Source: Tubiluchus corallicola (taxonomy: Eukaryota > Priapulida > Priapulimorpha > Priapulimorphida > Tubiluchidae). Taken from it: a stretch of 64,000 nt of DNA. This document shows positions 10,282-59,060 of the stretch, piece by piece (positions within the stretch are counted from its first letter, which is position 1; every line of letters begins with the position of its first letter). Made by a program: the position numbers and the translations under genes. The notes beneath the pieces are model-generated. The model was not told the DNA's origin, ran no database searches, and saw only the letters and a list, made by a program, of their open reading frames with translations. The stretch spans positions 1-64,000 of the forward strand of contig JAQGDQ010000662.1 in assembly GCA_030141605.1 (NCBI GenBank). Direction: 5' to 3'.

Positions 10282-10356
10282 TTACTCGTCGTAACGGGGT
10301 AGCGGCTTATTGTAACCTCTTTTCCCATATAGCCAGTAGGTATTGACGATTTTACC
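10282..10356 (-). CDS. Receptor GC exon 24 (last recognised coding exon)
   Basis: Residues about 1115-1138, [20 protein letters not shown] then RYDE and TAA. T-Y-W-L-x-G is the conserved final strand of the family, so the protein is complete here. The stop overlaps a good donor (GA|GTAAGT), so a further exon with another tail is possible. I found no convincing one below 10,282. Acceptor TTTTCAG. Confidence 0.85.
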   Translation of the reverse strand, partial: GKIVNTYWLYGKRGYNKPLPRYDE

Positions 10357-31300: not shown

Positions 31301-34300
31301 CATACAATTACAGTACAATAAAAGAGCAAGTATCAGTTAAGTCAGTTTTTTTACATTAACCACATATCAACAGTGGTAACTAGCGGAGTAAACTATAGTC
31401 CTAATCGATGTTTGTATCATTAAATAAAAATACGCTGTGTGAAGGAGTAGTGCTGTGTAAGCGCATTTACAAATTAACGAAAATTCGAAAAAATCGAAAT
31501 ATGAAATTTGAAAATAAAATTTGAACTTTCAACACTCTAATGAAAAACTACAATTACTCAACAAGAGGTAATTTCAATTTTTCAAAGTTCTTGTCTTGTA
31601 AAGGGTTAACGTACTTGACTTCCCGATCCAGTAGACGATGCAGCCGTTGACTTCTGTACCTTCCTTATGTCATCCCAGGAGAGACGCCACGCCATGAGCA
31701 ACATGCTCGCCTCTTTTTTTGAACGCCTGTAAAAGTTTTGCATAAAAGATGCGAGAACAAAACAGCAACGCAACGTTAAACAGCTGCATTTCCAGACAAT
31801 CCGCCAGTGCCAGGGTTTGGGTTCATGACAGTCTTACCAAGCTGTATATTGATGTTGAATACAAGCAATTCTGAATACACCAAATCAGAACTATACTGAT
31901 TGCGGAATTAGAAAATTGTAGGAAAAACAGCAGAACTGCACTTTCACACACGTTACTAACAGAAGCAAAATTCAGAGCAATAAGCCTTTTCACAGTTCCA
32001 GCAATTGATGGTGATCGTGAAAAGGTCAATGGTCAAACGTACCAAACAACGCATTTGTGTACAATTGCAATGCCTCGGAGCCCATGCTATTCTACTACTA
32101 ACAGTTTCAACAATTAGCTAGAACCTTACCTATTTCATTTTTTCTTGTTCCCAAGTAACATCTGCTAGTAAATCATTCTTACCTACAGACTAATGCATAA
32201 TTAAGTAAAGTCTACGTAAAACAACTGTAGTTACTGAACTGATGCACCAGAGGCTTTGCTTTACCCACACGTCACGTGATGGTTGTTGCTAGGACACGTT
32301 GCTGTGGTACACTTAATCTTTGACTTACAGCAAGTGCGCATGCGTACAACTAAACTATGAAAAGGCTTATTATTTTAATGTGACATTACTCTGCAACTAT
32401 CAATAAACTCATATAGACATGAATTTTAAATGTACAGGTTGAACTTTGGTGTACAAATAAGGCTACTTTCCACTGCATTTAATAATGGGTGCATAAAACC
32501 TTCAATGAAAATGAAAACTACATCACTATTACAGCAGTGGTGCTGCCACGCAATGTTTCAGAATAATTATATAATCATATTGTTTTATAGTCTGTCTTGT
32601 TAATCTGTCTGTGGCCTCAATGTTGCCTGAGAAATCTGCTCACAAATCACATGGCAATTACAAAAAAGTTAACTCTTTCAAGTTCCAAGTTTTTAGAAGT
32701 AAAATGAAGTTACTCAAGTGTACATTACGCTTCACCAGAATGAACTTTATTTCTATTTATTTCTTATTGTTTTTAATGTACGAGAAAAAAGGCAGGAGAG
32801 CTAGACTGGTGAATATTATCTCAAAGTTGCCGACCCGAATATGATTCGTGAAGTCGTTTGTGTTAAAGCATCTGTATAATTTGAAAGTCAAGAAATTTAT
32901 ATTGTAGATAGCTGGGGGAGGGTCCTTGAAGATAGTGTGGCGAACGGTGACATCAGTGAAACGGTCAAGGACAATGGACATTGGTCAATTTTTCGACTGT
33001 TATTCAACTTTACACAAGGTTTTAGGTTGAATTCAATTTTTTTCATAAGTATCGAGGAACTGTAGGGTAAATGTGTACCTGGGCCTTTAAAGAGGTGGAA
33101 TTCTTTAAAGGCCCAAAGAACCGAAATGAATAACAATGAACAACTCTAAAACTATGGTAACTAGACTCATGAAAGTTACAAGACCCTTGGGGCAGGGGTT
33201 CCGGCCACCGTATGGTTAGAAAACTTGGAACTCATTCAGGGTAGCAGGCAATATGTAAAAATCAGGGTATTGACATTTAATTCATGTTAGCTTGCAAATG
33301 TAGAAGGCTGGAGTCATGAAAATTAGTAGATACCTTGGCCTCAAAAAATAGTAGGGTGGACAGTGACCTCAATCGAAGGGCCAAGGTCGTTAGATATCAG
33401 TCAGTTTTTTGGCTGTCGTTGAACTACTCCCAAATCTTTGAGTTCAGTTAATTTTTTTTGGTAAGTATTAGGTACAGTGGATTAATAATCTACAACAAGC
33501 TCAACCAGGTACAGTCAGGTGTAAACACGGTAACAGCGTTATGATTGCGGATACAGATCTGATTTCGTACAGTCCTGCTGTTTAAGTACATAGTTTAGTA
33601 CAAGTAAAAATAAAAAAAAACCTGTACATAAGGACTCCAAATATCACGCATCCAGCAACGAACAAACTTGAAGCTACAGTAGCAATGATAATGATGAGTG
33701 TATCTAAAAACAAAAAATGACTGATCATTGTTCGGCAAATACCTTGATAAGACAATTAACAGGTATAATTCCCAAAAAAGTATTCCTCCAAGTTCAAGTT
33801 CCGATTAGCTTTATCTGCTATTCGGTTTCGCAAGGAAGCATACAGAGTGTCAGGAAATGATAGACCTCGCTATACTAAAAAGTATCACAGGTAGATTGAA
33901 AATATATTTTTTAATATTTTAATCGTAATATTTCTTACTTAAAAAATACATACCAAAAGTTTAACATGTTTTTAGAAAACAAGTACTGATGCTTATATGT
34001 TTTCAAAAAACACATACCGAAGCTTAATATGTTAAAAAAACACGTAGTTTAATGTGTTTTTAAAAAACACATACCAAAGTTTAATGTGTTTCAAAAAAAC
34101 ACAGATGGAAGTTTAATGTGTTTTTAAAAAACACGTACCAAAGTTTAATGTGTATTTAAAAAAACATGTACCAAAGTTTAATGTGTTTTTAAAAAACATG
34201 TACTGGAGTTTAATGTGTTTTCAAGAGACATGTACCGAAATTTACTATGTCTTAAAAATCACGTACCGAAGTTTAATGTGTTTTTAAAAAAACACGTACC

Positions 34301-37300
34301 GAAGTTTAATGTGTTTTTAAAAAACATGTACTGAAGTTTAATGTGCTTTTAAAAAACACGTACCAAAGTTTAATGTGTTTTGAAAAAACATGTACTGAAG
34401 TTTAATGTGTTTTCAAAAACATATACAGAAGTTTAACATGGTTTCAAAAAAGTGTGACGAAGTTTGATCATTTGGAATCACTTGAAAATTACCACACTGA
34501 TGTTACAGATTCTTGCGTGTAAACACCACACATTTTGATCATATCCTTAGGTTTTTCGAACGATAAAGAAGTTTTAAAACAGCAAGACAAAATAATAACT
34601 GCCAGCGAAACTTTTCACCATTTTCAAAAGTTATGACATTGCTCTACATGTCCACCATTTGCACTGCAAACTAGACAGAGACATTTCTTCAAACAACCGA
34701 TGCAGGTTTTTAACTTCTTTAAGGGGTATTTACTCTCAGCACCCAACAACTTTTACCTTTAGTTCCTCTTCATCAAATGGCTCTATGTGGCAGTCATACA
34801 TTTTCTCTCCAGGTACAGCAATCCATAGGATTAAGTCCCATTTTATTCTTGGTAACAAATCCTTGAAAGTGCTTATCATTTTGTGCAGTAGGTCATGATG
34901 TAAACTGGTTGATTTCTTTATTGTTTTGCTGCCATATATTGACTGTTTCATACGCTAATGTGGCTGTTTTTCGATTAATGATAACTGCATTGTTCCAGCA
35001 CTTAATTTTTTAACATGCAAAAGCTTTTTAGCTATAATTTAAAAACCACTAAAAGTATAAACTTGTAACTTTCACAGCAAAAAGTTAATCTATCATATTA
35101 TCAAGCTGCAAAATTTCAAGTTAGTACTGCTCTTGCTTCTAATATTACTATAGTCTAAATTTCTGCCTGTTTTGCTGCCATATATTGACTGTTTCATACG
35201 CTAATGTGGCTGTTTTTCGATTAATGATAACTGCATTGTTCCAGCACTTAATTTTTTAACATGCAAAAGCTTTTTAGCTATAACTTAAAAACCACTAAAA
35301 GTATAAACTTGTAACTTTCACAGCAAAAAGTTAATCTATCATATTATCAAGCTGCAAAATTTCAAGTTAGTACTGCTCTTGCTTCTAATATTACTATAGT
35401 CTAAATTTCGGTGCATTTTTTCTGCACGACCTGCACTACTTACAGTAGCCTGCACCTACTTACGTAATTTAATTAGTCATAATTACATACCGGACTCTTC
35501 AGGGCACAGTTCATTACTAAACCCACACGGAGGTTTGTCAGGAGGTGCAAATTGATGTCCAACCAATCCGCCGGGCCATTGAGGTTCGATCAGCTGCCTA
35601 AATACCTGAAATTGTTTGATAAATTAGCAACCAAAACAGCGCTAAAAACGTAAATTTCATCTAAGTAGAGATTACACATTAAGCAATAATGCTATAGAAT
35701 TGCAGAAATTACAGGTCATTATCCGAGGCCAAAAATTAGGCCGCAACACTACCTCCGTGCCGTTATACTCTCACCCACTACGTCGCTGATATACCTTCCC
35801 CAGTGTCTCCTTGCTTTCCTGCTCCATACTTTCAAGCTACAAGAGCAACTAGTAAGCCTTTTCACACTTCCAGCAATTGATGGTGATCGTGAAAAAGTCA
35901 AAGGTTAAGAGTACCAGACAACGTTTTTATGTACACTTGACAACGCCTCGCAGCCCATGCTGTTCTAATAGTAACAGTTTTAACAGATAGCTAAAACCTT
36001 GCCTAGTTCATTTTTTTTGTTCCCAAGCAAGATCCTGCTGGTAAATCACTCTATGCACAGACTAATGCATAATTAAGTAAAGTCCACGTAAGACAAGTGA
36101 ATTTACTGAACTGATCCGGCAGACGGCTTTGCTTTACACACATCACATGATGGATGTAGTTAAGACATGTTGCTGTGGTACACTTAACCTTTGACCTACA
36201 GTAAGTGCTCGTGCACACAACAAAACTGTGAAAAGGCTTGTTAAAAGAACATGACTGTGCAAACGACAGAAAATCAAATCCACAATGCATCATCATAACT
36301 AGCAACAATTTCTTTCACAAAAGCTGGTAAATTATTTTGAATTAGTTCAGAGTGAATGTTGGTGGCGGGGCTGGTATCTACCTCATTACTAAGGCTAATT
36401 ATCCAAAATATGACATTGAAAAGACAGAAGTATCTCAAGTCACACTAAAATGCGAATACATCATCCCTCAACAAGGTAAGCAGCTAGAATCAGAACGGTA
36501 AACAAAAACTACCCAGAGTGAGTATCGAATCCTCGTTAACCAGCCACAGCATAGCTTAATTTCGGTCACTAAGCACACACTGCATCCAGCCCACCAATAC
36601 CAAAATGCATGCAGTATCATATCACACCGGCTAAGTTTAGTTTAAATATAATTTATAGGATTGAGCAAACACTTTGATAGAATTGCAATATAATTACAAT
36701 TACAACTACAGAACATTAAGAAGACAATTATACAGCCACTGCTACTCAATATTAAAACCATTAAATTATCCTAATAAAGATCGTAAATTATTTCGAATTA
36801 GTTGCGGTGCAAATTTAAACTTAGTAGAAATTCTTTATTGGCATGAAAGATGTCCAAGACTGAATATGAAAAAAAACACAGAGTTTAAGAGTTTGAAGAT
36901 GCAACGATCAAAGCTACTGAATCGTCAATTGATTACTAAGGTTACGTAACAGCGATAAAACTGACAAACGTCAGATTAAAGTAACACATTTACTGCAGAC
37001 GAAAGAAAGCAGGGCAAAATACAATCCACGATGAAGCGAGCACAAAATGCCATCATCACTAATTGATAACGATACCTAGAATCTTTTGGCAGGCAATAAG
37101 CCTTTTCACACTTTTGTTGTGTGCACGAGCAGTTGCTGTATGTCAAACGTTAAGAGTATCACAGCAACGCGTCTTAACTACAACCGTCACGTGACGTGTG
37201 GGTAAAGCAAAGCTGTCTGCCACTCTGAACAAAAAAAAGTAGGTAAGGTTCTAGGTAGCTGTTAAAATTGTTAATAGTACAACAGCCTGGGCTGTGAGGT

Positions 37301-38063
37301 GTTGTCAAGTGTACACAAATGCTTTGTCTCGTACACTTAACCTTTAACCTTGTCACGATCATCATCAATAGCTGGCACTGTGAAAAGGCTTAACACTAGT
37401 CAGAAGAGTAATTGAGAACTAAGTGTGATTAAGCGACATCATACAACAATGTTTTGGGACATTAATGCACTTAGGAGCGTCAAAATTCTGGCACAACTAG
37501 CCAAAATAAGAAAGAGTTAACACCTCGTTTGAAAAACAGAATGAAGAAAACAATGTCTTTTACACGTTGCTTTGTACTTGCCTTAATGCTTAAAACAAAG
37601 CCACATCATTTCAAAACAAAAACCAATAAAAAATTGATATCGAGCACCTACCCGTGTTCCATCCTCCAAATTTACCACCTCCGCAAACTTCTGAAAGACT
37701 CCATCCTGATCCATGTCAGTGATCCAATAATCGGGTTCTCGATCACCCGCCTGATCCATTAGAAGATTTCCGCTCATTCCTAATTAAAGGAGCAACGAGA
37801 AACACGTCTTAACATGATGCACATCATCAATAAGTTCAATTTCTCGCCTAAATAAACGCGCAGCGGTAAAAAACTAAAAGAAAAATCAATAAGGGTAAAT
37901 GACAATGTTTATTCAACAATGCTTTGCGTATCTATCACCTTCCTAGTAAAACAATGTGATCGCATCTTAATGGATGTTCAAATTGTGTGCTTCTGTTTAA
38001 ATGTTTCTACGCACCCCACATACATGTTAAACATCCAACTTTGTAATTTAATGTTTCTATTCA

Positions 38064-41100: not shown

Positions 41101-44100
41101 AAAGGAGAAAAAAGTAATTTAAACTTTGTCTCTGAAAACTTTCTCACAAAATTATACTACTTAGCATTATGCTTACTTATTTAAAACACTTAGTCTATGA
41201 TTAAAAGAGAAAATTCTCAATATATCAAAATGTTCATGACAACTCGGTAAAACGGCACGGCAAGCGATAAAAAATGACTGGACGAATTTTTAAGATTTTT
41301 CACTAAGAGTGTTTTCTTGTCCTTTAAGTGAAAGAAAAAACAGATTGCTTAAGCTTTTAATGACGTGCACCATTGACACCACAACAGAAATGCTCGATAT
41401 AAAATGTAGAAGAAATAAAAGCGAATATACATTTAATTAAAAGCTTAATACAAACAACATTTTAAAGCACAAGAAAACCTTTTACTTACACAAAGCTAGA
41501 AAAATTTGCCTAAAAAATCACCTACACACTGCCTTATTGTGCACAGAGCTTGTATTAGTAGTAATGCTGTATAAAACTTGTAAATCTAAACTCCCGCGAT
41601 GACCGTTAGGCACAGCCATATTAACAGTAAGTCGTTTGAAACATGTTTAGCTAACATTGCACAAAGTTCGAAAAAAATAATCAGACATACCATAGTATAC
41701 CATTACTTTAAATGATTACAAATTTTCTTTTTTGATTACATAAATCTTTTAAGCAGGTAAACGTAATGCTAAATAATATAATTTCCTACAGAAAGTTTAA
41801 TGCAATATACTTTCTTTCCCTTTAAATATCTTTCATTGTGTAGCAGTTGCTCACATTGTGTGTTAATCTTTTAAAACAATTCAACCCACTAGGCTCCCCA
41901 ATGGAAGGAGTGATCCACCATCCAGCTTGTTCACTGTAGGATACTGTGGCAAAATCGGCAGCTAATTTATTATAACGGAAAGTTCTCTAGAATGGTACAC
42001 TAATCAGCAAAAGTTGTGAATTGGGATTTAGTTGCAAACCCATAACAACCAGAACGAATCTTTTGTTTAATTACATTATATTCGTAGTGTTAAGATGATT
42101 TACACACACATGACTAATCAAATTTTGACACCAAACCAGAAAGACAGGAAAAATGAAAAAGTGACAAGGACATAGCATGGATTTGAACCAGGGCCTTTCT
42201 GATCACATTTGCAGAACACCTTAGATCACCAAGCCACAACGGAAATGCTGAATCTGGTTGGGCAATTATAAGGGAAGAACTTTGGATTGCCTTGGTTACT
42301 GGAGAGTACGATGACTTAGTGGATTCTCTCGTTTGTTGACCACACATGTAGTTTGTGAGAACTTGCGTAAACCACCGAAAAAGTTTGATATTAATAGAGC
42401 AAAATGCGCCACATACCTTTAACAAACACCCCGCGCATGTTCTTGGCGACCTGAAGACCATCACGAGCATTTTGGTTCCCCGACAGTGTACTGTTGAGCG
42501 CGTGAGCGTACAACAACACGGCGTCATGAAGGAAAGCGGCGTATCTGTCTCCCTGGTAAAAAATCCACAAGCAAACGTATCTAATTTTCAATGAATACTT
42601 GAGTTTATAAAAAGTAAATCGTGCGTAATACCTTTAAAAAACATCCCACGCATGTTCTTTGCCACTTCTAGGCCATCACGTGGGTTTGAAGTCTTCAACA
42701 TGGTATAGTTGAGCGCGTGTGCGTACAAGAACACAGAGTCGTGCAGGAACGCAGAATAGCGGTCACCCTGGCAAAAAATTCACAAGCAAAAACAGTAGAC
42801 CTAACGAAATGCATAACGCTAGCATTGTGGCATAGATTGTACCTTTAAAGAAAATTCCTCGCATGTTTTTTGCTACATCGAGACCATCACGTGGATCTCG
42901 GCTCTGAGACATAGTATAATTGAGTGCCAGAGAGTACAGGAACACAGCGTCATGTAGAAAAGCTGCATACCTGTCACCCTACGTAAAAAATGCACAAGCG
43001 TTCCTGTAGTCAACAAGTATCTATGCTTAACGATGCAAATGCCAACGTGATGAGTACATTATATCACAAACTAAAACTGTGTTTAACATTGTAGTTGAGC
43101 AAGTCAAACACAAGGAAAATTGAGTTAGCTGACCAAGGTCAAGACTAAATAAGACATGTAAATAACTGGGGTTTTCACTGGGAAGTATCTCCAATTATGC
43201 AGCTGAAAAAACATTCGCTAATCCACCACAAATACTTTAATAATTTAGCAAATAACGGTAGACGGTCTTGCCCAAATGCCTAGAACTATTGCGCAAATGT
43301 CAAAATCAAAAGTGCTAGAAAAAAATTAAGTTATATGACCATCTGCTTGTAGCCAAAAGGTGCCTTCCCTTAGAACAAAAATGAATAAATTAGAAATGAA
43401 AAACACAAAAAAATGAAAATTTGAAAGAAAATGAAAAAACAAAAGTTGCGCGAACTTGACAGGATAACTAACTGTTCAGAAACAAGCTCAAGCATAAACA
43501 AAATAATTTTAAGAGTGAAGGCATAAAAAAATAAAACTGTCATAAAATGAAGTGCTTGGCACATACAAAGTACTTAACTACCAGTAACCAATAGTTTGTA
43601 CCTGTGTACAAATAAAGCGTACGTTCATCCGTACTAATATTAATACATACAGTTACACCTATACGAAGACAAAACACAAAGTGAGAATGGAGATTAAATA
43701 AACTCTCATAACAATTTCGCTATGCACTTTATCATGATCCAAGAAACTTTAATTTTTTTAAAACCTGAAACTGCACAACTATGTTAAACGAGTGCGCAGC
43801 GCTCCAAACATTACTATTTTATACTGAGTTCATTTAAACATACGGCAACCGATATGAATCAATTTAATTTTATATTGTTGCAATATTTTTGAATATTACG
43901 CAGCTGCCCTTCAATACTATAGCTCAGCAAGAAATTCCAGGCCTACAAGCTATGCAGAGGGGGTCTAAATTAACTATACTTGCCACTTACATAAATATTC
44001 AGCAGATCGAGTCCCAAGCCTTTAGGTATATACTGCTTCCACGGCGGCTTTCTCATTCTGTTAGCAACATCAATTCTGAATGCATCAACCTCGGGTCCAG

Positions 44101-47100
44101 TTAGCGCAGCCAAGCCCACCTGCAAATGTACAAGATGGCAATAAATTCGTCCTAGAAGTTTAACGTTTGACTTTTCGGAAGAAATACATGCACAGATGTA
44201 AAATTAAATTAATCAAATGTCCAGTAGGTAGCAGCAGAAAAGCACGTGCTTAGATGTTAAATTAAATGAACTAAATGTCCAGGAGATGGCAGCATAAAAA
44301 CACGTGCTTAGATGTTAAATTAAATGAATTAAATGTCCAGCAGATAGCAGCACAAAAGCATGTGCTTAGATATTAAATTAAATGAAGTAAATGTCCAGTA
44401 GATAGCAGCACAAAAGCATGTGCTTAGATGTTAAATTAAATGAACTAAATGTCCAGCAGATGGCAGCATAAAAACACGTGCTTAGATGTTAAATTAAATG
44501 TCCAGCAGATAGCAGCACAAAAGCATGAGCTTAGATATTAAATTAAATGAACCAAATGTCCAGTAGATAGCAGCACAAAAGCATGTGCTTAGATGATAAA
44601 TTAAATGAACTAAATGTCCAGCAGATGGCAGCATAAAAACGCGTGCTTAGATGTTAAATTAAATGAATTAAATGTCCAGCAGATAGCAGCACAAAAGCAT
44701 ATGCTTAGATATTAAATTAAATGAACTAAATGTCCAGTAGATAGCAGCACAAAAGCATGTGATGAAACCCCCAACAGTGTAAAAAATTCACTGGCCAGAT
44801 GTAAATTAAATAAGATCTTGTGCACGTACATGAAATACGCTTTCAAAGGCTTGCTTGGCTTCTTGGTTACGTTGGTCATTCGAATACCAGGTCTCCGTTG
44901 CATCTACTACATCGTCGTCAGGTAGGATATCCATTGTGTAGAACACATAGTCCCCGTTCGTCATGCCCAGATCATACGCTCGAATCATGAAGTTACGACG
45001 ATCCTTTGCAGGAGCTACTAGCATAACAACTGAAAATACACATCGACAATATTGCAAGCACATATAAATGCACAACTGTAAACACATATATGCAGCATAG
45101 CAAACACACATAAACTCACAACTGAAAACATATGTACACAACATAACAAGCACATACAAACTCGCAACTGAAAACTAACGTACACAAACATAGCAAACAT
45201 ATATAAATTCACAACTAAAAACATATGCACATAACATAGCAAGCATGTATAAACTCACAAGAGCTTACTCAAATAAGCTATTAATAGGACAAGAGAAATA
45301 AACTGCACATTAGTTATTTCAGTACCTCAATGCACTATACTGAAATGCACATTTGCTAGTGTTGAGACCGATTAAAGAATAACAATCAATTTGGGTTTAA
45401 CTCCTGATCTCAGATATTTTTTCAGCTGCTGATGCATGGATTGTATTAATACTATTTTAACTTATTTAAAAAAAAAACAGAAAATTCCACCACAAATGAA
45501 AATCACACAAAATATCACTATCTTTATGCAGTAACTTAATACATCGGCATCTCTGCTTAGACGCAAAGGTTTCTCATAGCACGAATGTGTGCTTTTAATC
45601 CATGCCTGCCTCTTTGTAAAATATATTCAATTAGATTTTCCTTATGATCATCGACATAATTATCGAATCGGTTTCATATCCAACTGATTATGAAGATCCA
45701 TCTGATTTTCCACCATTAATAATTACAGCAAAAAGAAATCATTTACAAACCTGACCTAATGAAGAGGCCCTAACTAGTACAAACAATCTACATTTCTGAC
45801 CAATCTAGCCATTTTACCCTTTCTGTTTTATGTTTCTTGCGCTAAACTACAAGTAAAAGAAAAACTTCTGCAATTAATGACTGCCTGGAATGAATTACTT
45901 CTGGTTTCTTTCTTAATTTCAGTGAGCATTTTCTTCATCTTGCGATCCGTAGGGTTATCCTCGTATTTGAGATGAGACGTAACGGTGATGTTCCTCTCGT
46001 TAAATGCATAAGCAACAGCTTTTGCAGCATCTCCCCACAACAACCTGAGAAACAGTAAAACAAAGGTTTGTACTTAGAATACTATTATTCACTTAAAAAA
46101 GACAATTACCGAAGATAAGCTCAATGGGCCCCTAAATTCCAATAAGAATTTATAGTGGCATCTGTGATATGAAATTTAAAATGGATCAGGAATGTTACAG
46201 TGAAACAATACAAATTTAAATATGGTACTTTTCTTCCAAGGACAGACGACGTGATATGAAAATCAATAACCTGCAAATGCAATACTCATTAAAAGACATT
46301 TCATTTGTTGTTAGAAGTTTTAGGTTGCAATACTATGCAGATGGGTACACAATTTTGAAATTTGTTGCTAAATTATGCTACAATTACAGTAATTGTACGT
46401 CTATGCTATACTATAGCCTGCATCTAAGTAAAGTGAAGAGAATAAGTTTGTATTTTGCAATTTGACTTGACAAATACTAACAGAACTCAGAACAATCCTG
46501 AACGTAGCATGGTTTTATTGCTCTCTGCTAAATATTCTCGTAGATTTCCAGACTCACGCACATCATGCTCAAGCATGACCGCTTGTACGTCACTACGTGT
46601 TGCACTTGTAATTGTCTATACCAACCGGTATTTCATGGTTGCTACAGACAAGCGATTTTTCGTGGTCAACTTCTGGTTAATTGCCATATAGAATAGTAAC
46701 GCCAGAAAGCTACTGAAGCCTCAATTTTATACTATGAATCTTTAAAATTTAATAGACTTTTTACAAAGCACGCAGCAATAACGCTCTTGAAAAGAAGCAG
46801 CCATTGGGAAAATGAGTAATCTTTGGATTACAAACAATGAAGTGTCTCTTGCAGTTTATTTTTTACGACTCATACATTGTGAAAGTGGGCTTTTAATTGG
46901 TGCATTTTTATTGCCTATATCTAGAACAGTGTTGAATTCTGTTCTGCTGAACAAACCGGAATTAAAGAGTAATGCACAACTAAAGCGAATTCAATTAATT
47001 TGCAACACGGTGTAGTTGATATACTATGAAACAAAAATATGTATTTAATTTGAGTATTATAAAAAGTTTAAGCATAACCGTATTACATTCTCTTGTATCA

Positions 47101-49672
47101 CTAATGATGAACTATCTATAGTGATTTTTTTCTTTTGACAGTACATACTAGTGTGCATTATAATTATACGTCTGGTATAATTATTGTTTTCTTTCAATTT
47201 TTACATACGTAGATGTCAACAATAATATTCCAAACTAATATTATGGTCGCATCGTTACAGTGTTACCAGCTGTTAAATAAAAAAATCAGAGCAAAACAAC
47301 TAGTGAGTTCAGGCAAGGTGTATCTTCTGTCATATGCTCCCACAGCAGCAGATACGATATAGTGTATGTTGTCAATAGATTCAAATAGGCAGACACATAG
47401 ACATCGCGATGCATGAAAAAAGAATCAAAAGCAATGGATAATAACAGAATTTCCACTGGTAGATGTGACCAAAGCACACAAAAGGCAAAACAACAGCAAA
47501 TTTGCGATATGCATGGATATCCACAGACTATGTTATATATTACACCGTTTTTATTTGTGAAAATCTTTCACAAACTAGAGCAAACATCGCGATAATTTAA
47601 AAAAAAGGAACAGTAGGCTGAAAAGGGACAAATCCTGATCGAAAAACAAGTCTAGTAAGCCTGCAAGTTAATCCACTTGGGACTAAATTAAGACATGTCA
47701 TTTAATCACAAGGACGTGGACGTGGCGCTACACTAAGAATTTATGTTAGAATAATACTTAAGCATACTAGCGTAACTGGTTCAAACTCAGCCAGATAACT
47801 GGTCTAAACTCAGTCCCCAATCCTGACTCCTTCGTGCTTACTTAGTTTTATAGAAAAGTAATGCGTTTCAGAAATTTCGTAAAATCTAAATTAACAACGT
47901 AATTGTGTCCTACAAGCGTGTACTATTTTCCATTAAAATAATTCTATTAGTATGTTTACCAGTTTGAAGAAATAATTCCAATACGTTTCCATCCGTAGTA
48001 ATCAAATATGTTGATTAAGAAAGCACCCAGCTTGTCAAAAGAGCCGAGCGTGCGACCCATAGTAGGATAGACAGCTTTGTCATTGAATTCTACATCAGTG
48101 GTAACCCACGTGATGAGAGGAAGATTCCAGAATGCAGCCAGTTGTCCAACTACTCTTGCAGCTAGCCACAAAACAATTAAGATAATATTGGTAACAATAA
48201 TATAATTTTCATTGTAAACAATATTAATTTTTATGAAATAAAGTAAGCAACACAATTTACAAAATTTGATGAAGTAAAAAGATGGACTTCATCATCAGGT
48301 TCATTGTGACCTGTACATCATCTACTTTTAATGGCTTACGCTTAAGCACGTTTGCTTGCAAGAAAAGTTGTTTTAGATCAGATTATCGCTCGAAAACCAA
48401 AATTAAAAAATATCATTTTTTCACAGTTAAAAGATACAGGTTTGTTCTAATAAAACCGTGATAAACTTCTTTGTAACGCGATTGTTTTTTAAAAAGTTAC
48501 AATTGCTTACAATTGTGGTTGTCATTATTGTCATTGTTACTGTCACTGGTATTTTTATTGTCGCAATCATTATCATTGTTGTTAGTCACTTTCTTGTTAC
48601 ATATTTAGAAGAGGTAACGATATTTTGTATGAATTCATGATTACCATCAGAACAGGCAGGTCCAAAGAAAACATCAATGCGTTCATTGATGTACATTTCA
48701 GCTGCATTGCCAGATGCTAGTTTACTATCACAGCTGGTATCTCTGGTTATAACCCTGAAATATTGAATCAGCAACTAAACAAAGGCTAAATTAAAACAAG
48801 GAGTGGCAATTAATTGACTCTATGGCTGACCGACCAACTGACTGACTAACTGACTGTCGACTGACTGACTATTCCTACACGGTTAAAACCCAGAAATGTT
48901 GAGTTAGTGGCAAAATATAAAAATAAATATAACTGATTAAAAACAATGAGTAACGATCAGTAGACTTTCTGCTGACTCGTTGATTGATTTACTAATTGGC
49001 CAGTGAAGAACTCATGACTGACTGACTGGCTGATTGAACGACTGTCCACCCATCGAACAACCTGCCAAGCTTCTGACTGACTGATTAATTGAAAACGTGA
49101 ACATAATTAATGAATGAGTAACTATGTGAATGTATGTAAAATAAACAAGTAAAATTAAAAAATGGAAAAGAATAAAGAAATAGCTGAACTAATGAATGAA
49201 TGATCGAATAACTGAAAAAAACAATGGATGGATGAATGAGTAACTTCATCTTTCTCTTGTCAGTCATTCGTCTGCTTTTACATTTGCTCGTTGGATTCAT
49301 TTGCTCATTTTTTCTCAAATTGATTCATTCGTTTATTTAGTTATTTCATTAAATCTTATATTCAGTCATTCATTAAGAAACTTACTTTAATCGAAAAGGA
49401 AAACCAGGATTGGCATGAACTTTCTCAATAGCTATAGACACAGCACTGGCACTGGTCACTCCACTAAAATACTCAAAATTAGCCACCCAGGGAATAAGTA
49501 GCCCAATAAGGAATTGCGGTAAACCAGATCCGTCTTCATCCAACTTTCTTACTTCTGACTTGAACGTGCCACTAGAATTTGTGAAAGTGTTGCTATTGGC
49601 TGACGTCTGTTTCAGCCCCAACACTAGTACTACCAACACCAGGAGAGCCTTCGTCTTCATTGGCTGCGACAT
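10282..49672 (-). CDS. Receptor guanylate cyclase, natriuretic-peptide-receptor type (whole gene, 24 coding exons)
   Basis: Single-pass membrane receptor predicted to convert GTP to cGMP, or to take part in that, on ligand binding. I joined 24 exons at GT-AG sites; all phases agree and the coding length is 3,417 nt, about 1,138 residues, normal for the family. Domain order: signal peptide about 1-25; ANF-receptor ligand-binding domain about 50-450; transmembrane helix about 486-510; Ser/Gly-rich juxtamembrane stretch; kinase homology domain about 590-860 with VAIK lysine 610, SHGNLK in place of HRD, and DYGL at 722; coiled coil about 885-925; cyclase domain about 940-1115. Metal-binding Asp 953 (FSDIVGF) and Asp 997 (ETIGDAY) are present. 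The catalytic Asn and Arg positions are Ser 1072 and Lys 1076, which is unusual. Exon 7 exists in three tandem versions. Introns run from 75 bp to over 4 kb and are full of repeats. The family is certain; the ligand and the closest subfamily are not. Confidence 0.93.
10587..10943. mobile_element. MITE family A, copy 1
   Basis: 357 bp between TA dinucleotides, ends AGCCTTTTCACAGTT and AACTGTGAAAAGGCT, opposite orientation to copies 3 and 4. In the intron between exons 23 and 24. Confidence 0.85.
11054..11997. mobile_element. TIR element family C, copy 1
   Basis: 944 bp, ends ACAGTAGGCGCCGCTTTA and TTAAGCAGCGCCTACTGT as inverted repeats. Subterminal sequence repeats CCTATTAACC and GAGTCAATTAAGC-like words at both ends. 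No open frame of note. In the intron between exons 23 and 24. Confidence 0.7.
12395..12690. repeat. Trinucleotide-rich tract (ATC/ACC/GCC)
   Basis: Imperfect CAT, CAC and CGC triplets over about 300 bp, with a duplicated ATCGACCGCTGTCATGATGG block. In the intron between exons 23 and 24, 13 bp from exon 23. Confidence 0.9.
12703..12797 (-). CDS. Receptor GC exon 23 (end of cyclase domain)
   Basis: Residues about 1083-1114: [15 protein letters not shown] then [12 protein letters not shown]. Matches R-I-H-V-S ... F-E-L-x-x-R-G-x-x-x-x-K-G at the end of the catalytic domain. Acceptor TTGCAG, donor GTACGG, phases 1 to 0. A trinucleotide-repeat tract follows directly in the intron. Confidence 0.9.
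12897..13270. mobile_element. TIR element family F, copy 1 (right end lost)
   Basis: Starts TTGACTCTTGCAGGACCG and follows 15,755 onward closely (TGCATTTTGCATGGGTTCAT, AATTATATATGAAATGCATT), with a gap of about 190 bp. Similarity fades after GAAAAGGGCGTGCTTTTC. Intron between exons 22 and 23. Confidence 0.65.
13652..13762 (-). CDS. Receptor GC exon 22 (cyclase domain, altered catalytic motif)
   Basis: Residues about 1046-1082. [20 protein letters not shown] then [16 protein letters not shown]. Cys 1065 (guanine recognition) is present. The family motif V-N-T-A-S-R-M-E-S reads I-S-F-A-G-K-M-E-A, so the transition-state Asn is Ser 1072 and the phosphate-binding Arg is Lys 1076. The reading frame is clean on both sides, so this is not sequence decay. 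Acceptor CTTTAG, donor GTATGT, phase 1. Confidence 0.94.
13770..14150. repeat. Pyrimidine-rich tandem array, about 120-bp period
   Basis: Three diverged units, each with GTCTAATTAGCTGTTTG-like sequence, a TTTCTTTC tract and ACAATTTCATTATTTGTTT. Intron between exons 21 and 22. Confidence 0.75.
14525..14687 (-). CDS. Receptor GC exon 21 (cyclase domain)
   Basis: Residues about 992-1045. Begins [20 protein letters not shown]. Glu 993 is the guanine-recognition residue and Asp 997 the second metal ligand; both are present. The later half, including [16 protein letters not shown], is ordinary. Acceptor TTACAG, donor GTAATG, phases 0 to 1. Confidence 0.95.
14824..15237. repeat. About 24-bp minisatellite
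   Basis: Roughly 17 units of CATACAAGCCTTTCTTAGTT plus a few bases, variable at the left, more uniform at the right. Intron between exons 20 and 21. Confidence 0.92.
15646..15714 (-). CDS. Receptor GC exon 20 (cyclase domain)
   Basis: 69 bp, 23 codons: [20 protein letters not shown] then VYK. LLND-x-Y-x-x-F-D is a conserved helix of class III cyclases. Acceptor TTGCAG, donor GTAAAG, phase 0. Confidence 0.93.
15755..16490. mobile_element. TIR element family F, TTAA-flanked, copy 2
   Basis: 736 bp from TTAACTCCATCAGGACTG to CAGTCCTGAAAGAGTTAA. The ends are inverted repeats, and TTAA sits at both borders, as after TTAA-targeted insertion. That fits a piggyBac-like non-autonomous element, but the TIR bases are not enough to prove it. 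Intron between exons 19 and 20. Confidence 0.65.
17833..17956 (-). CDS. Receptor GC exon 19 (start of cyclase domain)
   Basis: Residues about 927-968. [20 protein letters not shown] then [15 protein letters not shown]. Asp 953 of FSDIVGF is the first metal-binding residue. Acceptor TTACAG, donor GTTAGC, phases 2 to 0. Confidence 0.95.
18281..19249. mobile_element. MITE family A, copy 2, split by a family B insertion
   Basis: The left 340 bp or so begins AGCCTTTTTCACAGTT and follows copy 3; the right end is TGTGAAAAGGCT followed by TA. The middle (18,626-19,174) is a family B element, which explains the 969-bp length. The whole lies inside an older inverted-repeat element. Confidence 0.75.
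18626..19174. mobile_element. TIR element family B, copy 1 (nested)
   Basis: Begins TTAAAGGACAAGAAAA and ends TTTACTTGTGCTTTAA, an imperfect inverted repeat. The interior matches 27,580-28,566 in several blocks, such as AAAAAACTTTCC, TTGTTTCAAAnGA and GGAGTTTAAATTTACA. No protein. Confidence 0.7.
19370..19450. repeat. Short tandem repeat, about 20-bp unit
   Basis: Four to five units of TTAAGAATGCGTGAAAA type, in the intron between exons 18 and 17. Confidence 0.8.
19680..19817 (-). CDS. Receptor GC exon 18 (dimerisation coiled coil)
   Basis: Residues about 881-926, the signalling helix. [19 protein letters not shown] then [15 protein letters not shown] closely follows the family pattern L-E-x-x-V-x-E-R-T-x-x-L-x-x-E-K. 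The first GT after LLP would give the wrong phase; the next one, GTAGGT, fits exon 19, so the exon ends at 19,680. Acceptor CATTTAG, phase 2 on both sides. Confidence 0.92.
19818..21479. other. Intron sequence, nothing recognised
   Basis: Part of the 4-kb intron between exons 17 and 18. A degenerate TGATGCTCCTTGACACT-like tandem repeat is visible at about 20,660-20,760; otherwise I see nothing. Confidence 0.6.
21480..21940. mobile_element. TIR element, probably family B-related
   Basis: Begins CCTTAAAGTACAAGAAAA and ends TTTTCTTGTCCTTTAA. The interior is unlike the other B copies and includes a GC-richer part with GGCGCCATCTAACATGGCGCC. Possibly a different element that shares termini. Confidence 0.5.
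22814..23400. other. Unassigned GC-richer block in an intron
   Basis: After an (AT)n run the base composition changes for about 600 bp. It contains several GC-rich words (CCACCGGGCGAAATCC, GGACCGGAGGTGGTGCCGG, GTCCCAATTCCCG). No open frame I recognise, no terminal repeats found. Probably a foreign element. Intron between exons 17 and 18. Confidence 0.4.
23816..23993 (-). CDS. Receptor GC exon 17 (end of kinase homology domain)
   Basis: Residues about 822-880, [14 protein letters not shown], then [22 protein letters not shown]-x-E-x-P-x-x-R-P-x-F is the conserved last helix of kinase-like domains. Acceptor TTTTAG, donor GTGAGT, phases 1 to 2. The exon is clearly richer in GC than the flanking introns. 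Confidence 0.93.
24480..25135. repeat. Dispersed repeat family I, copy 1
   Basis: Matches 29,640-30,080 in several blocks in the same order: GAGTTTGAAAATACAA, CTTTTAGGCAG/TTTTTAGGCAG, ATGCATTTTACTTTGAAG and AACGTAGTTTTAACTATG. No ends or coding capacity recognised. Intron between exons 16 and 17. Confidence 0.55.
25726..25953 (-). CDS. Receptor GC exon 16 (kinase homology domain C-lobe)
   Basis: Residues about 746-821. Contains [37 protein letters not shown] and CPPYNF, the WTAPE and GD-x-FSF signatures. Acceptor AATAG at 25,954-25,955, or CAACAG giving a start at 25,942, depending on the donor of exon 15. Donor GTAAAA, phase 1. Confidence 0.88.
27049..27166 (-). CDS. Receptor GC exon 15 (kinase homology domain; 3' end uncertain)
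   Basis: Residues about 707-745, [19 protein letters not shown] then a charged loop. DYGL replaces DFG. Acceptor CTTCCAG. Two donors are possible: GTACTG after 27,049 (phase 1), or the stronger-looking CAG|GTGATT after 26,993 (phase 0). Each pairs with a different acceptor of exon 16, and both keep the frame open. The second would add a 15-residue loop. Confidence 0.8.
27580..28566. mobile_element. TIR element family B, copy 2, interrupted by family C
   Basis: The left part (about 27,580-27,827) and right part (about 28,316-28,566) match the two halves of the B copy at 18.6-19.2 kb. The block between them is a family C element. The ends are diverged and the limits are approximate. Confidence 0.6.
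27828..28315. mobile_element. TIR element family C, copy 2 (truncated)
   Basis: The right end GCGGCGCCTACTGTA and about 450 bp of interior match 11,540-11,997, including AAGTGATTAAATGTTTA and AACAAAATGGTACTTAACAT. The left part is missing. Inserted in a family B element. Confidence 0.6.
28641..28766 (-). CDS. Receptor GC exon 14 (kinase homology domain)
   Basis: Residues about 665-706, [19 protein letters not shown] then GMEAI and [15 protein letters not shown] replaces the HRD catalytic loop, as in all receptor cyclases. Acceptor TTGAAG (poor pyrimidine tract), donor GTAGGA, phase 0. Confidence 0.88.
29315..29419 (-). CDS. Receptor GC exon 13 (kinase homology domain)
   Basis: Residues about 630-664, [20 protein letters not shown] and then [14 protein letters not shown]-x-N-L-x-x-F-x-G and E-Y-C-x-x-G-S-L are hallmark pseudokinase motifs of receptor cyclases. 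Acceptor GTTTAG, donor GTAAGT, phase 0. Confidence 0.92.
29640..30080. repeat. Dispersed repeat family I, copy 2
   Basis: Counterpart of 24,480-25,135 with blocks GAGTTTGAAAATACAAG, GATGCATTTTACTTTGAAG and AACGTAGTCTTAACTATG. Intron between exons 12 and 13. Confidence 0.55.
30910..31149 (-). CDS. Receptor GC exon 12 (Ser-rich linker, N-lobe of kinase homology domain)
   Basis: Residues about 550-629. A long Ser/Gly-rich stretch ([11 protein letters not shown] and others) precedes [20 protein letters not shown]. The VAIK lysine is residue 610. In vertebrate natriuretic receptors this region holds the clustered Ser/Thr phosphorylation sites that set sensitivity, and the composition here fits that role. 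Acceptor TGACAG, donor GTATTT, phase 0. Confidence 0.9.
31615..31726 (-). CDS. Receptor GC exon 11 (cytoplasmic juxtamembrane)
   Basis: Residues about 512-549. Begins [20 protein letters not shown], matching the basic stop-transfer and W-x-x-D-I motif of the family, then becomes Ser/Thr-rich. Acceptor TTACAG, donor GTACGT, phases 2 to 0. Confidence 0.88.
31983..32367. mobile_element. MITE family A, copy 3
   Basis: 385 bp with terminal inverted repeats AGCCTTTTCACAGTT and AACTATGAAAAGGCT flanked by TA on both sides, so a TA target duplication is likely. No coding capacity. It lies in the intron between exons 10 and 11 of the receptor cyclase, in the same orientation as copy 4. Confidence 0.85.
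33080..33115. repeat. 14-bp inverted repeat with 8-nt loop
   Basis: TGGGCCTTTAAAGA and TCTTTAAAGGCCCA flank GGTGGAAT. In the intron between exons 10 and 11. No function evident. Confidence 0.7.
33622..33703 (-). CDS. Receptor GC exon 10 (transmembrane helix)
   Basis: Residues about 485-511, encoding one hydrophobic helix from [13 protein letters not shown] to GVLMY and ending in Arg. This is the only membrane segment besides the signal peptide. Acceptor TTTTTAG, donor GTTTTT (weaker than the others), phases 1 to 2. Confidence 0.85.
33940..34455. repeat. About 37-bp minisatellite with internal inverted symmetry
   Basis: About 13 units of the type ACCAAAGTTTAATGTGTTTT followed by an A-run and ACACGT. 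TGTGTTTTT and AAAAACACA within each unit are complementary, so each unit can form a small hairpin. Intron between exons 9 and 10. Confidence 0.9.
34922..35409. repeat. Recent 246-bp tandem duplication
   Basis: 34,922-35,167 and 35,168-35,409 are almost identical. I see one clear internal difference (GCTATAATTT and GCTATAACTT). Ends 82 bp from exon 9, in the intron. Confidence 0.93.
35491..35605 (-). CDS. Receptor GC exon 9 (extracellular juxtamembrane)
   Basis: Residues about 447-484. Has WPGG, then [18 protein letters not shown]. PPDxPPCGF and a second Cys just outside the membrane are typical of natriuretic-peptide-type receptors. Acceptor TTTCAG, donor GTATGT, phases 0 to 1. Confidence 0.9.
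35855..36238. mobile_element. MITE family A, copy 4
   Basis: 384 bp with terminal repeats AGCCTTTTCACACTT and AACTGTGAAAAGGCT. The interior closely follows copy 3 (for example GACTAATGCATAATTAAGTA). Intron between exons 8 and 9. Confidence 0.85.
36512..36592 (-). repeat. tRNA-like SINE head (weak)
   Basis: The minus strand reads TGCTTAGTGACCG and then AGGATTCGATACTC at suitable distance, resembling A and B boxes. Only a suggestion. Confidence 0.3.
37099..37390. mobile_element. MITE family A, copy 5 (internally deleted)
   Basis: 292 bp in the opposite orientation to copies 3 and 4. Both ends and the GTACACTTAACCTTT-type subterminal parts are kept, but about 90 bp of the middle is missing. 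TA on both sides. Confidence 0.8.
37652..37779 (-). CDS. Receptor GC exon 8 (end of ligand-binding domain)
   Basis: Residues about 404-446. Begins [20 protein letters not shown] and continues with a strand ending LEDGTR. G-x-x-G-x-x-x-x-D-x-x-G-D-R-x-x-D-Y is the family's calcium-loop-like motif near the membrane. Acceptor AATTAG, donor GTAGGT, phases 1 to 0. Confidence 0.92.
38068..38146. repeat. (CT)n microsatellite
   Basis: About 39 uninterrupted CT dinucleotides in the intron before exon 8, about 290 bp upstream of that exon's acceptor on the minus strand. Confidence 0.98.
38755..40320 (-). mobile_element. Penelope-like element with inverted terminal arms (decayed)
   Basis: The two ends, about 38,755-39,100 and 39,957-40,320, are inverted copies of each other; each carries the 3' end of the coding region and the terminal sequence. 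On the minus strand between them run reverse transcriptase and GIY-YIG nuclease remnants in the order expected for Penelope elements. Inverted repeats made of the element's own sequence (pseudo-LTRs) are a known feature of this class. The right arm also holds an internal tandem duplication of about 75 bp (around 40,020-40,150). It sits in the intron before exon 8 of the receptor cyclase, in the same orientation as the gene. Confidence 0.8.
39050..40076 (-). pseudogene. Penelope-like reverse transcriptase and GIY-YIG nuclease remnant
   Basis: Reading the minus strand: [15 protein letters not shown] then [10 protein letters not shown] and [12 protein letters not shown] (end of the Penelope RT; compare F-L-D ... 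S-V-Y-R-K-x-T-x-T). After frame changes, [13 protein letters not shown] and [16 protein letters not shown], then [20 protein letters not shown] and RICEYLG (nuclease; the usual YIG is YHD here), then [20 protein letters not shown] and a tail running into the left arm. Several frameshifts and stops make it non-functional. Confidence 0.8.
41098..41332. mobile_element. TIR element family B, copy 3 (short)
   Basis: About 235 bp. Starts CTTAAAGGAGAAAAAAG, ends TTTTCTTGTCCTTTAAG, with the ACTTAGCATTATGCTTAC block of the family inside. An internally deleted copy. Confidence 0.65.
41520..41825. mobile_element. TIR element family B, copy 4 (partial, inverted)
   Basis: Opposite orientation to copy 3. 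It carries GACCGTTAGGCACAGCC, AAGTCGTTTGAAACA and GCAGGTAAACGTAATGCTAA, which are reversed family blocks. No clear left end. Confidence 0.55.
42168..42260 (-). repeat. tRNA-like SINE head
   Basis: The minus strand has an A-box-like TGGCTTGGTGATCTAAGG and a B box GGTTCAAATCC about 45 nt later, with a possible anticodon stem TTCTG/CAGAA with an oversized loop. Not a functional tRNA. Next to exon 7 copy a. Confidence 0.45.
42417..42552 (-). CDS. Receptor GC exon 7, copy a (alternative, last in transcript order)
   Basis: 136 bp with the same phases. Begins [15 protein letters not shown] and ends [11 protein letters not shown], with the centre [14 protein letters not shown]. About 32 of 45 residues match copy b. 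The intron between a and b is 79 bp. Acceptor ACCAG, donor GTATGT. The glycosylation sequon is NST here. It is the copy nearest the downstream constitutive exon, which lies 4.6 kb away. Confidence 0.9.
42632..42767 (-). CDS. Receptor GC exon 7, copy b (alternative)
   Basis: 136 bp with the same phases and boundaries as copy c. Begins [15 protein letters not shown] and ends [11 protein letters not shown], with the centre [14 protein letters not shown]. About 34 of 45 residues match copy c. The intron between b and c is only 75 bp. Acceptor TGCCAG, donor GTATTA. No stop or frameshift. Confidence 0.9.
42843..42978 (-). CDS. Receptor GC exon 7, copy c (alternative, first in transcript order)
   Basis: 136 bp, enters in phase 0 and leaves in phase 1. 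Begins [15 protein letters not shown] and ends [11 protein letters not shown], with the variable centre [14 protein letters not shown]. Acceptor ACGTAG, donor GTACAA. It matches the DGLLLY...TDG...F-x-G segment of natriuretic-peptide receptors, close to the membrane in the ligand-binding domain. The NYT glycosylation sequon is kept. Confidence 0.9.
43991..44119 (-). CDS. Receptor GC exon 6 (ligand-binding domain)
   Basis: Residues about 316-358, 129 bp, exactly 43 codons. It reads [18 protein letters not shown] and then LGLDLLNIY. Acceptor TTGCAG, donor GTAAGT, phase 0 on both sides. It is the common partner that must join one of the three exon 7 copies. Confidence 0.9.
44195..44760. repeat. 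57-58 bp minisatellite, about ten units
   Basis: Unit with AAATGTCCAGCAGATAGCAG, AAAAGCATGTGCTTAGAT and TTAAATTAAATGAA. Two alternating variants (ATAGCAGCACAAAAGCATG and ATGGCAGCATAAAAACACG) suggest a dimeric unit. Lies 70 bp from exon 5 and 75 bp from exon 6. Confidence 0.93.
44830..45029 (-). CDS. Receptor GC exon 5 (ligand-binding domain)
   Basis: Residues about 249-315. Motifs are [20 protein letters not shown] and [14 protein letters not shown], the usual second-lobe strand, helix and strand of natriuretic-peptide-type receptors. Acceptor TTTTCAG, donor GTACGT, phases 1 to 0. A minisatellite begins directly upstream, just outside the acceptor. Confidence 0.9.
45030..45245. repeat. About 43-bp minisatellite abutting exon 5
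   Basis: About five diverged units of ACAACTGAAAACATATG and ACATAACAAGCACATA type. It starts right at the acceptor of exon 5, so it supplies that exon's branch-point region. Confidence 0.8.
45899..46044 (-). CDS. Receptor GC exon 4 (ligand-binding domain)
   Basis: Residues about 200-248, [20 protein letters not shown] followed by a charged helix ending KKETR. Acceptor CTCAG, donor GTAATT, phases 2 to 1. It corresponds to the linker and the start of the second lobe. Confidence 0.88.
46045..47959. other. Intron between exons 3 and 4, nothing recognised
   Basis: AT-rich, free of obvious repeats, with scattered short open frames that lack motifs. The cleanest long intron of the gene. Confidence 0.6.
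47960..48161 (-). CDS. Receptor GC exon 3 (ligand-binding domain)
   Basis: Residues about 133-199. Reads [16 protein letters not shown] then [15 protein letters not shown] and [10 protein letters not shown], the typical centre of the ANF-receptor fold: chloride-site region, R-T-x-x-S motif, and W-x-x-I strand. Acceptor GGCTAG, donor GTAAAC, phases 1 to 2. Confidence 0.92.
48645..48754 (-). CDS. Receptor GC exon 2 (ligand-binding domain)
   Basis: Residues about 96-132, acceptor TTTCAG, donor GTAATC, phases 2 to 1. It carries the family motif [13 protein letters not shown] and then FFGPACSDG. The two Cys flank the stretch that forms the first conserved disulphide of ANF-receptor domains. Confidence 0.9.
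48755..49385. other. Intron 1 with imperfect tetranucleotide tracts
   Basis: Long stretches of degenerate GACT and then ATGA-type repeats on the plus strand (about 48,820-49,360). No gene. Confidence 0.7.
49386..49672 (-). CDS. Receptor GC exon 1 (signal peptide, start of ligand-binding domain)
   Basis: Residues 1-95. The Met at 49,672 opens a classic secretion signal: a basic MKTK, then a hydrophobic [11 protein letters not shown] core, then a small-residue cleavage region near TSA. A second in-frame Met four codons on would also give a good signal peptide. N-glycosylation sequons (NSS and others) follow. The matureregion around [18 protein letters not shown] is the start of the ANF-receptor fold. 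The exon ends at a GTAAGT donor in phase 2. An acceptor (TTTTTTAG) lies at 49,688-49,694, so the exon begins at 49,687 and at least one non-coding exon must lie upstream. Confidence 0.92.
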
Positions 49673-57443: not shown

Positions 57444-57626
57444 GTGGATCTTGTACACAGTACAATACGTAGACGTGTATTACTTAACAAATGTCTCGAA
57501 CTAAAAAGAAACAAAGTAATCTTGTATGTTTGGACTAAAAATGGCCAGATTTTCATCAGGAAAACTGAATCATCTGAACCCTTCCCTGTAAACAATTTTG
57601 ATGATGTAGATAAATTAAAACACTAA
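57444..57626 (+). pseudogene. LINE ORF1, C-terminal fragment (FP25K-like region)
   Basis: About 60 codons ending LYVWTKNGQIFIRKTESSEP then NFDDVDKLKH and a stop. W-T-K-N-G-x-I-F-x-R-K is the conserved end of the FP-like ORF1 found in many invertebrate LINEs. The frame has no Met and opens abruptly, so the ORF1 start is missing through 5' truncation or an earlier break. Confidence 0.6.
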
Positions 57627-57663
57627 TCCCTTCTTCACTCGTTTGAATCAATTTCTCATTGTA

Positions 57664-59007: not shown

Positions 59008-59060
59008 CTAAACCATGGATCACTCCCGGCATTCTTAATTCTATTAAAACAAGAAGCCGT

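What the first reader, a model, noticed from the sequence alone, without database searches (positions are those of the whole stretch)
42417..42978. Triplicated, apparently mutually exclusive exon 7 in the ligand-binding domain of a receptor guanylate cyclase
Seen: three intact exons in tandem, all exactly 136 bp, all entering in phase 0 and leaving in phase 1, separated by introns of only 79 and 75 bp in a gene whose other introns are mostly kilobase-sized. Because 136 is not a multiple of three, using two copies shifts the frame: joining copy c to b gives GGG TGA, an immediate stop, and joining b to a reaches a TGA within ten codons. Skipping all copies also shifts the frame. Both frame and short introns (steric block) would enforce one-of-three choice. 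The copies share their ends (GDRY...FLHD and VAKNMRG) but differ most in a central loop after the N-glycosylation site. Inference: three receptor isoforms with different membrane-proximal surfaces, perhaps altering ligand choice or dimer partner. I know of no described natriuretic-type receptor with this arrangement, but could not search.
Basis: partly seen in the sequence, partly recalled or inferred. Interest (0 to 1): 0.88.

Follow-up and report, generated by a model that had tools for sequence, protein, structure and literature searches.

The report
Triplicated exon in receptor guanylate cyclase
One exon of a hormone-receptor-type enzyme gene exists in three side-by-side versions of which only one at a time gives a readable protein, so the animal can probably make three versions of the same receptor; no transcripts were available to prove it.

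Summary
On the minus strand, exons c (42978-42843), b (42767-42632) and a (42552-42417) are each 136 bp, phase 0 in, phase 1 out, with AG/GT ends and introns of 75 and 79 bp. They sit in a predicted 24-exon receptor guanylate cyclase of 1138 residues (C-terminal end not settled). Each single copy gives an open protein; the five other forward-order choices (none, cb, ca, ba, cba) hit a stop 1-54 codons into the region. The 18 paralogous loci found in this genome each show one copy. Exons are 72-74% identical while the DNA just downstream is mostly unalignable; dN/dS is 0.10-0.16, but constraint on copy a alone is not shown. A 17-base element occurs in the window only beside these three acceptors. 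Best reading: a three-way mutually exclusive exon cluster, enforced mainly by frame; steric block cannot forbid c+a. Use and ligand effects are untested. Nine paper searches listed no parallel in receptor cyclases. In passing: other receptor cyclases here show tandem first exons before one shared body, possibly more unusual.

The parts
42843..42978 (-). exon 7 copy c (first in transcript order), 136 bp, phase 0 to 1
42632..42767 (-). exon 7 copy b (middle), 136 bp, phase 0 to 1
42417..42552 (-). exon 7 copy a (last), 136 bp, phase 0 to 1; highest-scoring donor of the three
42768..42842 (-). 75-bp intron c-b
42553..42631 (-). 79-bp intron b-a
42983..42999 (-). acceptor-side element GCTTGTGNATTTTTTNC upstream of copy c
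   Evidence: 3 matches in the window, all without mismatch; 0.04 expected at up to 1 mismatch
42771..42787 (-). same element upstream of copy b
42556..42572 (-). same element upstream of copy a
49386..49672 (-). E1: predicted start, signal-peptide-like N-terminus, start of ligand-binding domain
48645..48754 (-). E2, ligand-binding domain
47960..48161 (-). E3, ligand-binding domain
45899..46044 (-). E4, ligand-binding domain
44830..45029 (-). E5, ligand-binding domain
43991..44119 (-). E6, shared exon upstream of the cluster, ends in phase 0
37652..37779 (-). E8, shared exon downstream of the cluster, entered in phase 1
35491..35605 (-). E9, juxtamembrane part with CGFSNELCP
33622..33703 (-). 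E10, apparent transmembrane helix (seen by eye)
23816..31726 (-). E11-E17: juxtamembrane and kinase-homology exons (31726-31615, 31149-30910, 29419-29315, 28766-28641, 27166-27049, 25953-25726, 23993-23816); the E15/E16 joint is the least certain, as it adds residues that the paralog matches do not show
10283..19817 (-). E18-E24: linker and guanylate cyclase domain (19817-19680, 17956-17833, 15714-15646, 14687-14525, 13762-13652, 12797-12703, 10356-10283); the last exon runs into a TAA that overlaps a donor-like GTAAGT, so the C-terminal end is not settled

Best explanation
A three-member cluster of mutually exclusive exons, made by tandem duplication within one receptor guanylate cyclase gene. 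Each transcript keeps one of c, b or a. Shown by sequence: 136 is 1 mod 3, so exactly one copy restores the frame, and 0, 2 or 3 copies give an early stop; three is the largest number for which frame alone can police every combination. Inferred: transcripts with the wrong number are decayed or useless; the choice among copies is made by splice-site competition and probably by a factor reading the element GCTTGTG-N-ATTTTTT shared just upstream of the three acceptors; the product is three receptor isoforms that differ in 16 of 45 residues, mainly a loop beside a conserved N-glycosylation site, tuning ligand affinity, dimer coupling or glycan environment.
For: Three 136-bp exons with intact AG/GT ends and identical phases inside a GT-AG gene model; 3 of 3 single-copy choices open through 1138 codons, 5 of 5 other forward-order choices stopped. 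18 of 18 paralogous loci found have one recognisable copy. Exons 72-74% identical; of the 54 bases downstream, c-b and c-a are no more alike than shuffles (234 and 168 of 300 as good), b-a weakly alike (10 of 300); the 32 bases upstream are alike (0 of 300 for each pair). Pairwise dN/dS 0.10-0.16 with dS 1.2-1.5. Acceptor scores of the copies (4.0-7.1; the other 22 range 0.6-11.9) and donor scores (5.5-9.9; the other 22 range 4.1-9.1) are ordinary or better. The 17-base acceptor-side element occurs 3 times in the window, each beside one of these exons, 0.04 expected; its core GCTTGTG is in the last 40 bases before none of the other 22 acceptors (one, E5, has TGCTT). Variable residues cluster in one run (P 0.0076).
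Against: No transcript data: use of any copy is unproven. Constraint per copy is uneven: private changes nonsynonymous to synonymous are 4:9 for c (P 0.001), 5:6 for b (P 0.024), 9:5 for a (P 0.24); by codon position the P values are 0.0088, 0.12 and 0.31; in a codon model, omega = 1 is disfavoured by 2dlnL 3.10 for c and 4.05 for b, while copy a has omega 1.33 and 0.00. No docking-selector pairing above shuffles (5, 19, 5 and 14 of 30 shuffles as good), and no exact complement of the element's core in the introns on either side of the cluster. The core also occurs once elsewhere on the minus strand, at 29079. The 75/79-bp introns show no clear branch point. No second species could be compared.
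Confidence: 0.75

Rival explanations
1. One copy is the working exon and the others are poison exons: joining two shifts the frame and switches the receptor off by mRNA decay.
For: Double inclusion gives a stop within 54 codons, and copy a is not visibly constrained on its own branch.
Against: Poison exons need no protein-level conservation, but all three copies keep the frame, the N-x-T site and the core motif, and pairwise dN/dS is 0.10-0.16.
Confidence: 0.1
2. Relics of tandem duplication: only one copy is used and the others are decaying.
For: Copy a has branch omega not different from 1; an open frame of 45 codons would survive this much random change in 28-40% of simulations.
Against: dS above 1 means an old duplication, yet exons are 72-74% identical where the downstream intron DNA is not; all six splice sites and all three lengths are intact; copy a has the highest donor score.
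Confidence: 0.1
3. Assembly artefact (collapsed or stitched haplotypes).
For: The assembly seems to carry some duplicate contigs, for example C1338 and C1677 with identical match scores.
Against: The copies differ at 35-38 of 135 coding bases, far beyond usual allelic difference, and the exon searches found no second copy of this locus.
Confidence: 0.03

Closest known systems
AMPA receptor flip/flop exons (recalled)
   Same: Tandem homologous exons of one length, used one at a time, altering a small part of a ligand-binding region.
   Different: Two exons, in an ion channel; here three, in a receptor guanylate cyclase, and use is unproven.
Insect Dscam, Mhc, CadN, MRP mutually exclusive exon clusters (named in PMC9013439 section 3; PMC6071210 section 3)
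   Same: Tandem-duplicated exons, one-of-n use, similar length and sequence.
   Different: Those are documented as spliced so and, in several, guided by docking-selector RNA pairing; no such pairing was detected here.
Natriuretic peptide receptors NPR-A and NPR-C (1dp4, 1jdn)
   Same: Same ligand-binding domain: E 5e-31 and 1.8e-30.
   Different: No mutually exclusive exon described for them in what I saw of the paper searches; cyclase motif [12 protein letters not shown] here against GDTVNTASRMES in a paralog of the same genome.
UGT1A alternative first exons (PMC9013439 section 6)
   Same: Comparable to the first-exon arrays seen in other receptor cyclases of this genome.
   Different: Concerns other loci, not the window's exon 7.

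Membership tests
mutually exclusive exon cluster from tandem duplication | adjacent homologous exons of equal length and phase with intact splice sites | tested here: met
mutually exclusive exon cluster from tandem duplication | only single inclusion keeps the reading frame | tested here: met
   3 of 3 single choices open, 5 of 5 other forward-order choices stopped
mutually exclusive exon cluster from tandem duplication | every copy under protein-level constraint | tested here: inconclusive
   pairwise dN/dS 0.10-0.16; c and b supported to differing degrees, a not shown
mutually exclusive exon cluster from tandem duplication | transcripts contain exactly one copy | not testable with these tools
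   no RNA data
docking-selector class of such clusters | competing complementary intron sequences | tested here: not met
   one species, intron 6 and the first 2 kb of the downstream intron only; not filed in this class
natriuretic-type receptor guanylate cyclase | ANF_receptor domain, kinase-homology domain and cyclase domain in one protein | tested here: met
   on the predicted spliced protein: E 1.1e-56, 2.9e-34 and 9.7e-58
natriuretic-type receptor guanylate cyclase | single transmembrane helix and signal peptide | not tested
   both visible by eye in the translation; no predictor run
natriuretic-type receptor guanylate cyclase | consensus catalytic Asn and Arg of the cyclase (their roles recalled) | tested here: not met
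   [12 protein letters not shown] against GDTVNTASRMES in paralog C1743; bears on activity rather than on family membership, which rests on the domain order
alternative first-exon array, UGT1A-like (other loci) | several homologous first exons with own start before one shared body | tested here: inconclusive
   arrangement seen at C1911, C1060 and C1465; own promoters and transcripts not tested

The most novel reading that the evidence does not exclude
This animal builds a receptor guanylate cyclase repertoire by exon duplication at two points of the ligand-binding domain: one-of-three exon 7 in the window gene, and, in other loci, arrays of two to six alternative first exons (start codon, signal-peptide-like stretch and the N-terminal half of the ligand-binding domain) spliced to one shared signalling body, as UGT1A does for its enzymes. 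That would be a combinatorial sensor family of a kind I found described nowhere for guanylate cyclases.
Probability: 0.45. Interest if true: 0.8.

Novelty: new member of a known kind. Interest (0 to 1): 0.58.

Why it matters
If the three exons are used, one receptor gene yields three ligand-binding surfaces on the same enzyme, a natural experiment on how a small change in this domain alters hormone sensing or dimer coupling. It also gives a compact case, at the three-copy limit, in which reading frame alone can enforce one-of-n splicing, with a candidate shared splice element to test.

Tried and rejected
Docking-selector RNA pairing: 30-base pieces of intron 6 and of the first 2 kb of the downstream intron were scanned against two sets of three intron pieces around the copies; nothing beyond shuffles. 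Steric exclusion as the full explanation: rejected for c+a. The region around C1743 looked like tandem cyclase exons; one search reads it as two successive exons. COX1 to name the animal: no match in the assembly. Homeobox reading suggests a lophotrochozoan, from recalled signatures (labial, Hox2-5, Lox5-like, Antp, Post2-like); 20 of the 118 listed places were fetched and 18 of the 20 gave a readable homeobox; the species stays unknown. The first splice assembly had most donors one base off and was redone. Intron lengths elsewhere were only read by eye from myosin exon matches, the shortest about 90-100 bp.

Papers: nine searches, of which searches listed only part of the papers counted (25 of 30, 25 of 62, 12 of 130, 10 of 17). 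Seen beyond listings: PMC9013439 outline and sections 3 and 6; PMC6071210 outline (with abstract) and section 3; passages of PMC1435932, PMC4584282 and PMC3493385. Nothing seen describes mutually exclusive or alternative first exons in a receptor guanylate cyclase.

Full report
What is there. Reading the minus strand, three 136-bp exons stand in tandem: c 42978-42843, b 42767-42632, a 42552-42417, separated by 75 and 79 bp, all with AG and GT ends. Their 45 full codons are 71-76% identical in protein.

The gene. Using two paralogs of the same genome as guides and splice-site listings, I built a 24-exon model from 49672 to 10283. Every intron is GT-AG, phases agree throughout, and each of the three isoforms translates to 1138 residues without a stop. 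The E15/E16 joint and the C-terminal end are the least certain parts: the last exon runs into a TAA that overlaps a donor-like GTAAGT. Pfam finds ANF_receptor, kinase and Guanylate_cyc in the spliced protein; the ligand-binding domain is closest to NPR-A among solved structures, E 5e-31. The model rests on homology and splice rules, not on transcripts.

Frame logic. With one copy the protein is open. With none, cb, ca, ba or cba, the stop comes 1, 46, 54, 54 and 46 codons into the region. The steric argument is weaker: it can concern c-b and b-a only, and PMC6071210 (section 3) restricts it to two-exon clusters, and frame-based decay to clusters of at most three. This cluster sits exactly at that limit.

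Is it more than chance or decay? Synonymous divergence is 1.2-1.5 and dN/dS 0.10-0.16 between copies. Exon identity of 72-74% (0 of 300 shuffles as good) contrasts with the 54 bases downstream, where shuffles do as well in 234 of 300 (c-b), 168 of 300 (c-a) and 10 of 300 (b-a). Splice-site scores lie within or above those of the other 22 sites. Against this, private changes give constraint for c (4 nonsynonymous to 9 synonymous, P 0.001) and b (5 to 6, P 0.024) but not a (9 to 5, P 0.24); by codon position only c stands out (P 0.0088; b 0.12; a 0.31); and a four-sequence codon model gives copy a a branch omega of 1.33, not different from 1, with 2dlnL against omega = 1 of 3.10 for c and 4.05 for b. 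With 45 codons this has little power; copy a may be relaxed or diversifying.

The copies in context. Two exon-peptide searches found 18 further places in the genome. All 18 were fetched with about 1.5 kb on each side (one, C1982, is cut by the contig end to about 0.8 kb upstream) and each holds one recognisable copy; other hits in them are short chance matches. A strongly diverged duplicate would be missed, and receptor cyclase loci that the two searches did not reach were not looked at.

A shared element. GCTTGTGNATTTTTTNC lies directly before the acceptor of each copy and nowhere else in the window, with 0.04 matches expected at up to one mismatch. The T run is ordinary for an acceptor; the GCTTGTG core is found within 40 bases of none of the other 22 acceptors, and once more on that strand, at 29079. 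It has no exact complement in the introns on either side of the cluster, so a bound factor or a branch-site role is more likely than pairing; this is inference.

What differs between isoforms. Sixteen of 45 residues vary, seven in a row just after the N-x-T site. The segment aligns to NPR-A chain residues of about 319-352 (weak alone). Its place in the fold is recalled, not computed.

In passing. Elsewhere in this genome the counterpart of E1-E4 is one large exon (open frames of 227-276 codons: start, signal-peptide-like stretch, N-terminal half of the ligand-binding domain). At C1060 three such exons precede one E5-like exon in 20 kb read in full; at C1465 two precede one in 7 kb, the rest of the body not followed; at C1911 five (one with a stop) precede one E5-like pair and one E7-like exon in 26 kb read in full, with a sixth at 509 kb whose surroundings were not read. 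Ten of ten first exons examined have a donor in phase 1, and the further C1911 members show a GT at the same place. Among four C1911 siblings dN/dS is 0.17-0.23 for the three pairs without the stop-bearing copy, and 0.31, 0.37 and one saturated value with it. Alternative first exons are the simplest reading; tandem gene remnants remain possible.

Verdict.

Noticed in passing
G000 C1911 466001-492000 and 507900-509700 (L035-L038); C1060 126001-146000 (L026, L027); C1465 13001-20000 (L028): Tandem arrays of two to six large first exons (start plus N-terminal half of the ligand-binding domain) upstream of one shared receptor cyclase body, resembling alternative first-exon arrays.
   Followed up: partly
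G000 C460 117599-118426 and 158503-159270 (L029, L030); C2205 about 68-94 kb: Further pairs or triples of similar first exons; the stretches between them were not read.
   Followed up: no
window 13762-13652: The cyclase motif reads [12 protein letters not shown] instead of GDTVNTASRMES, and paralog C21 reads GSTIMDAARMEA; these cyclases may be weak or inactive.
   Followed up: partly
window 57619-60983, + strand: Two long reading frames with endonuclease and reverse transcriptase domains: a LINE-like retroelement.
   Followed up: partly
G000 C1338 and C1677: Identical match scores and frames on two contigs, probably both haplotypes of one locus.
   Followed up: no
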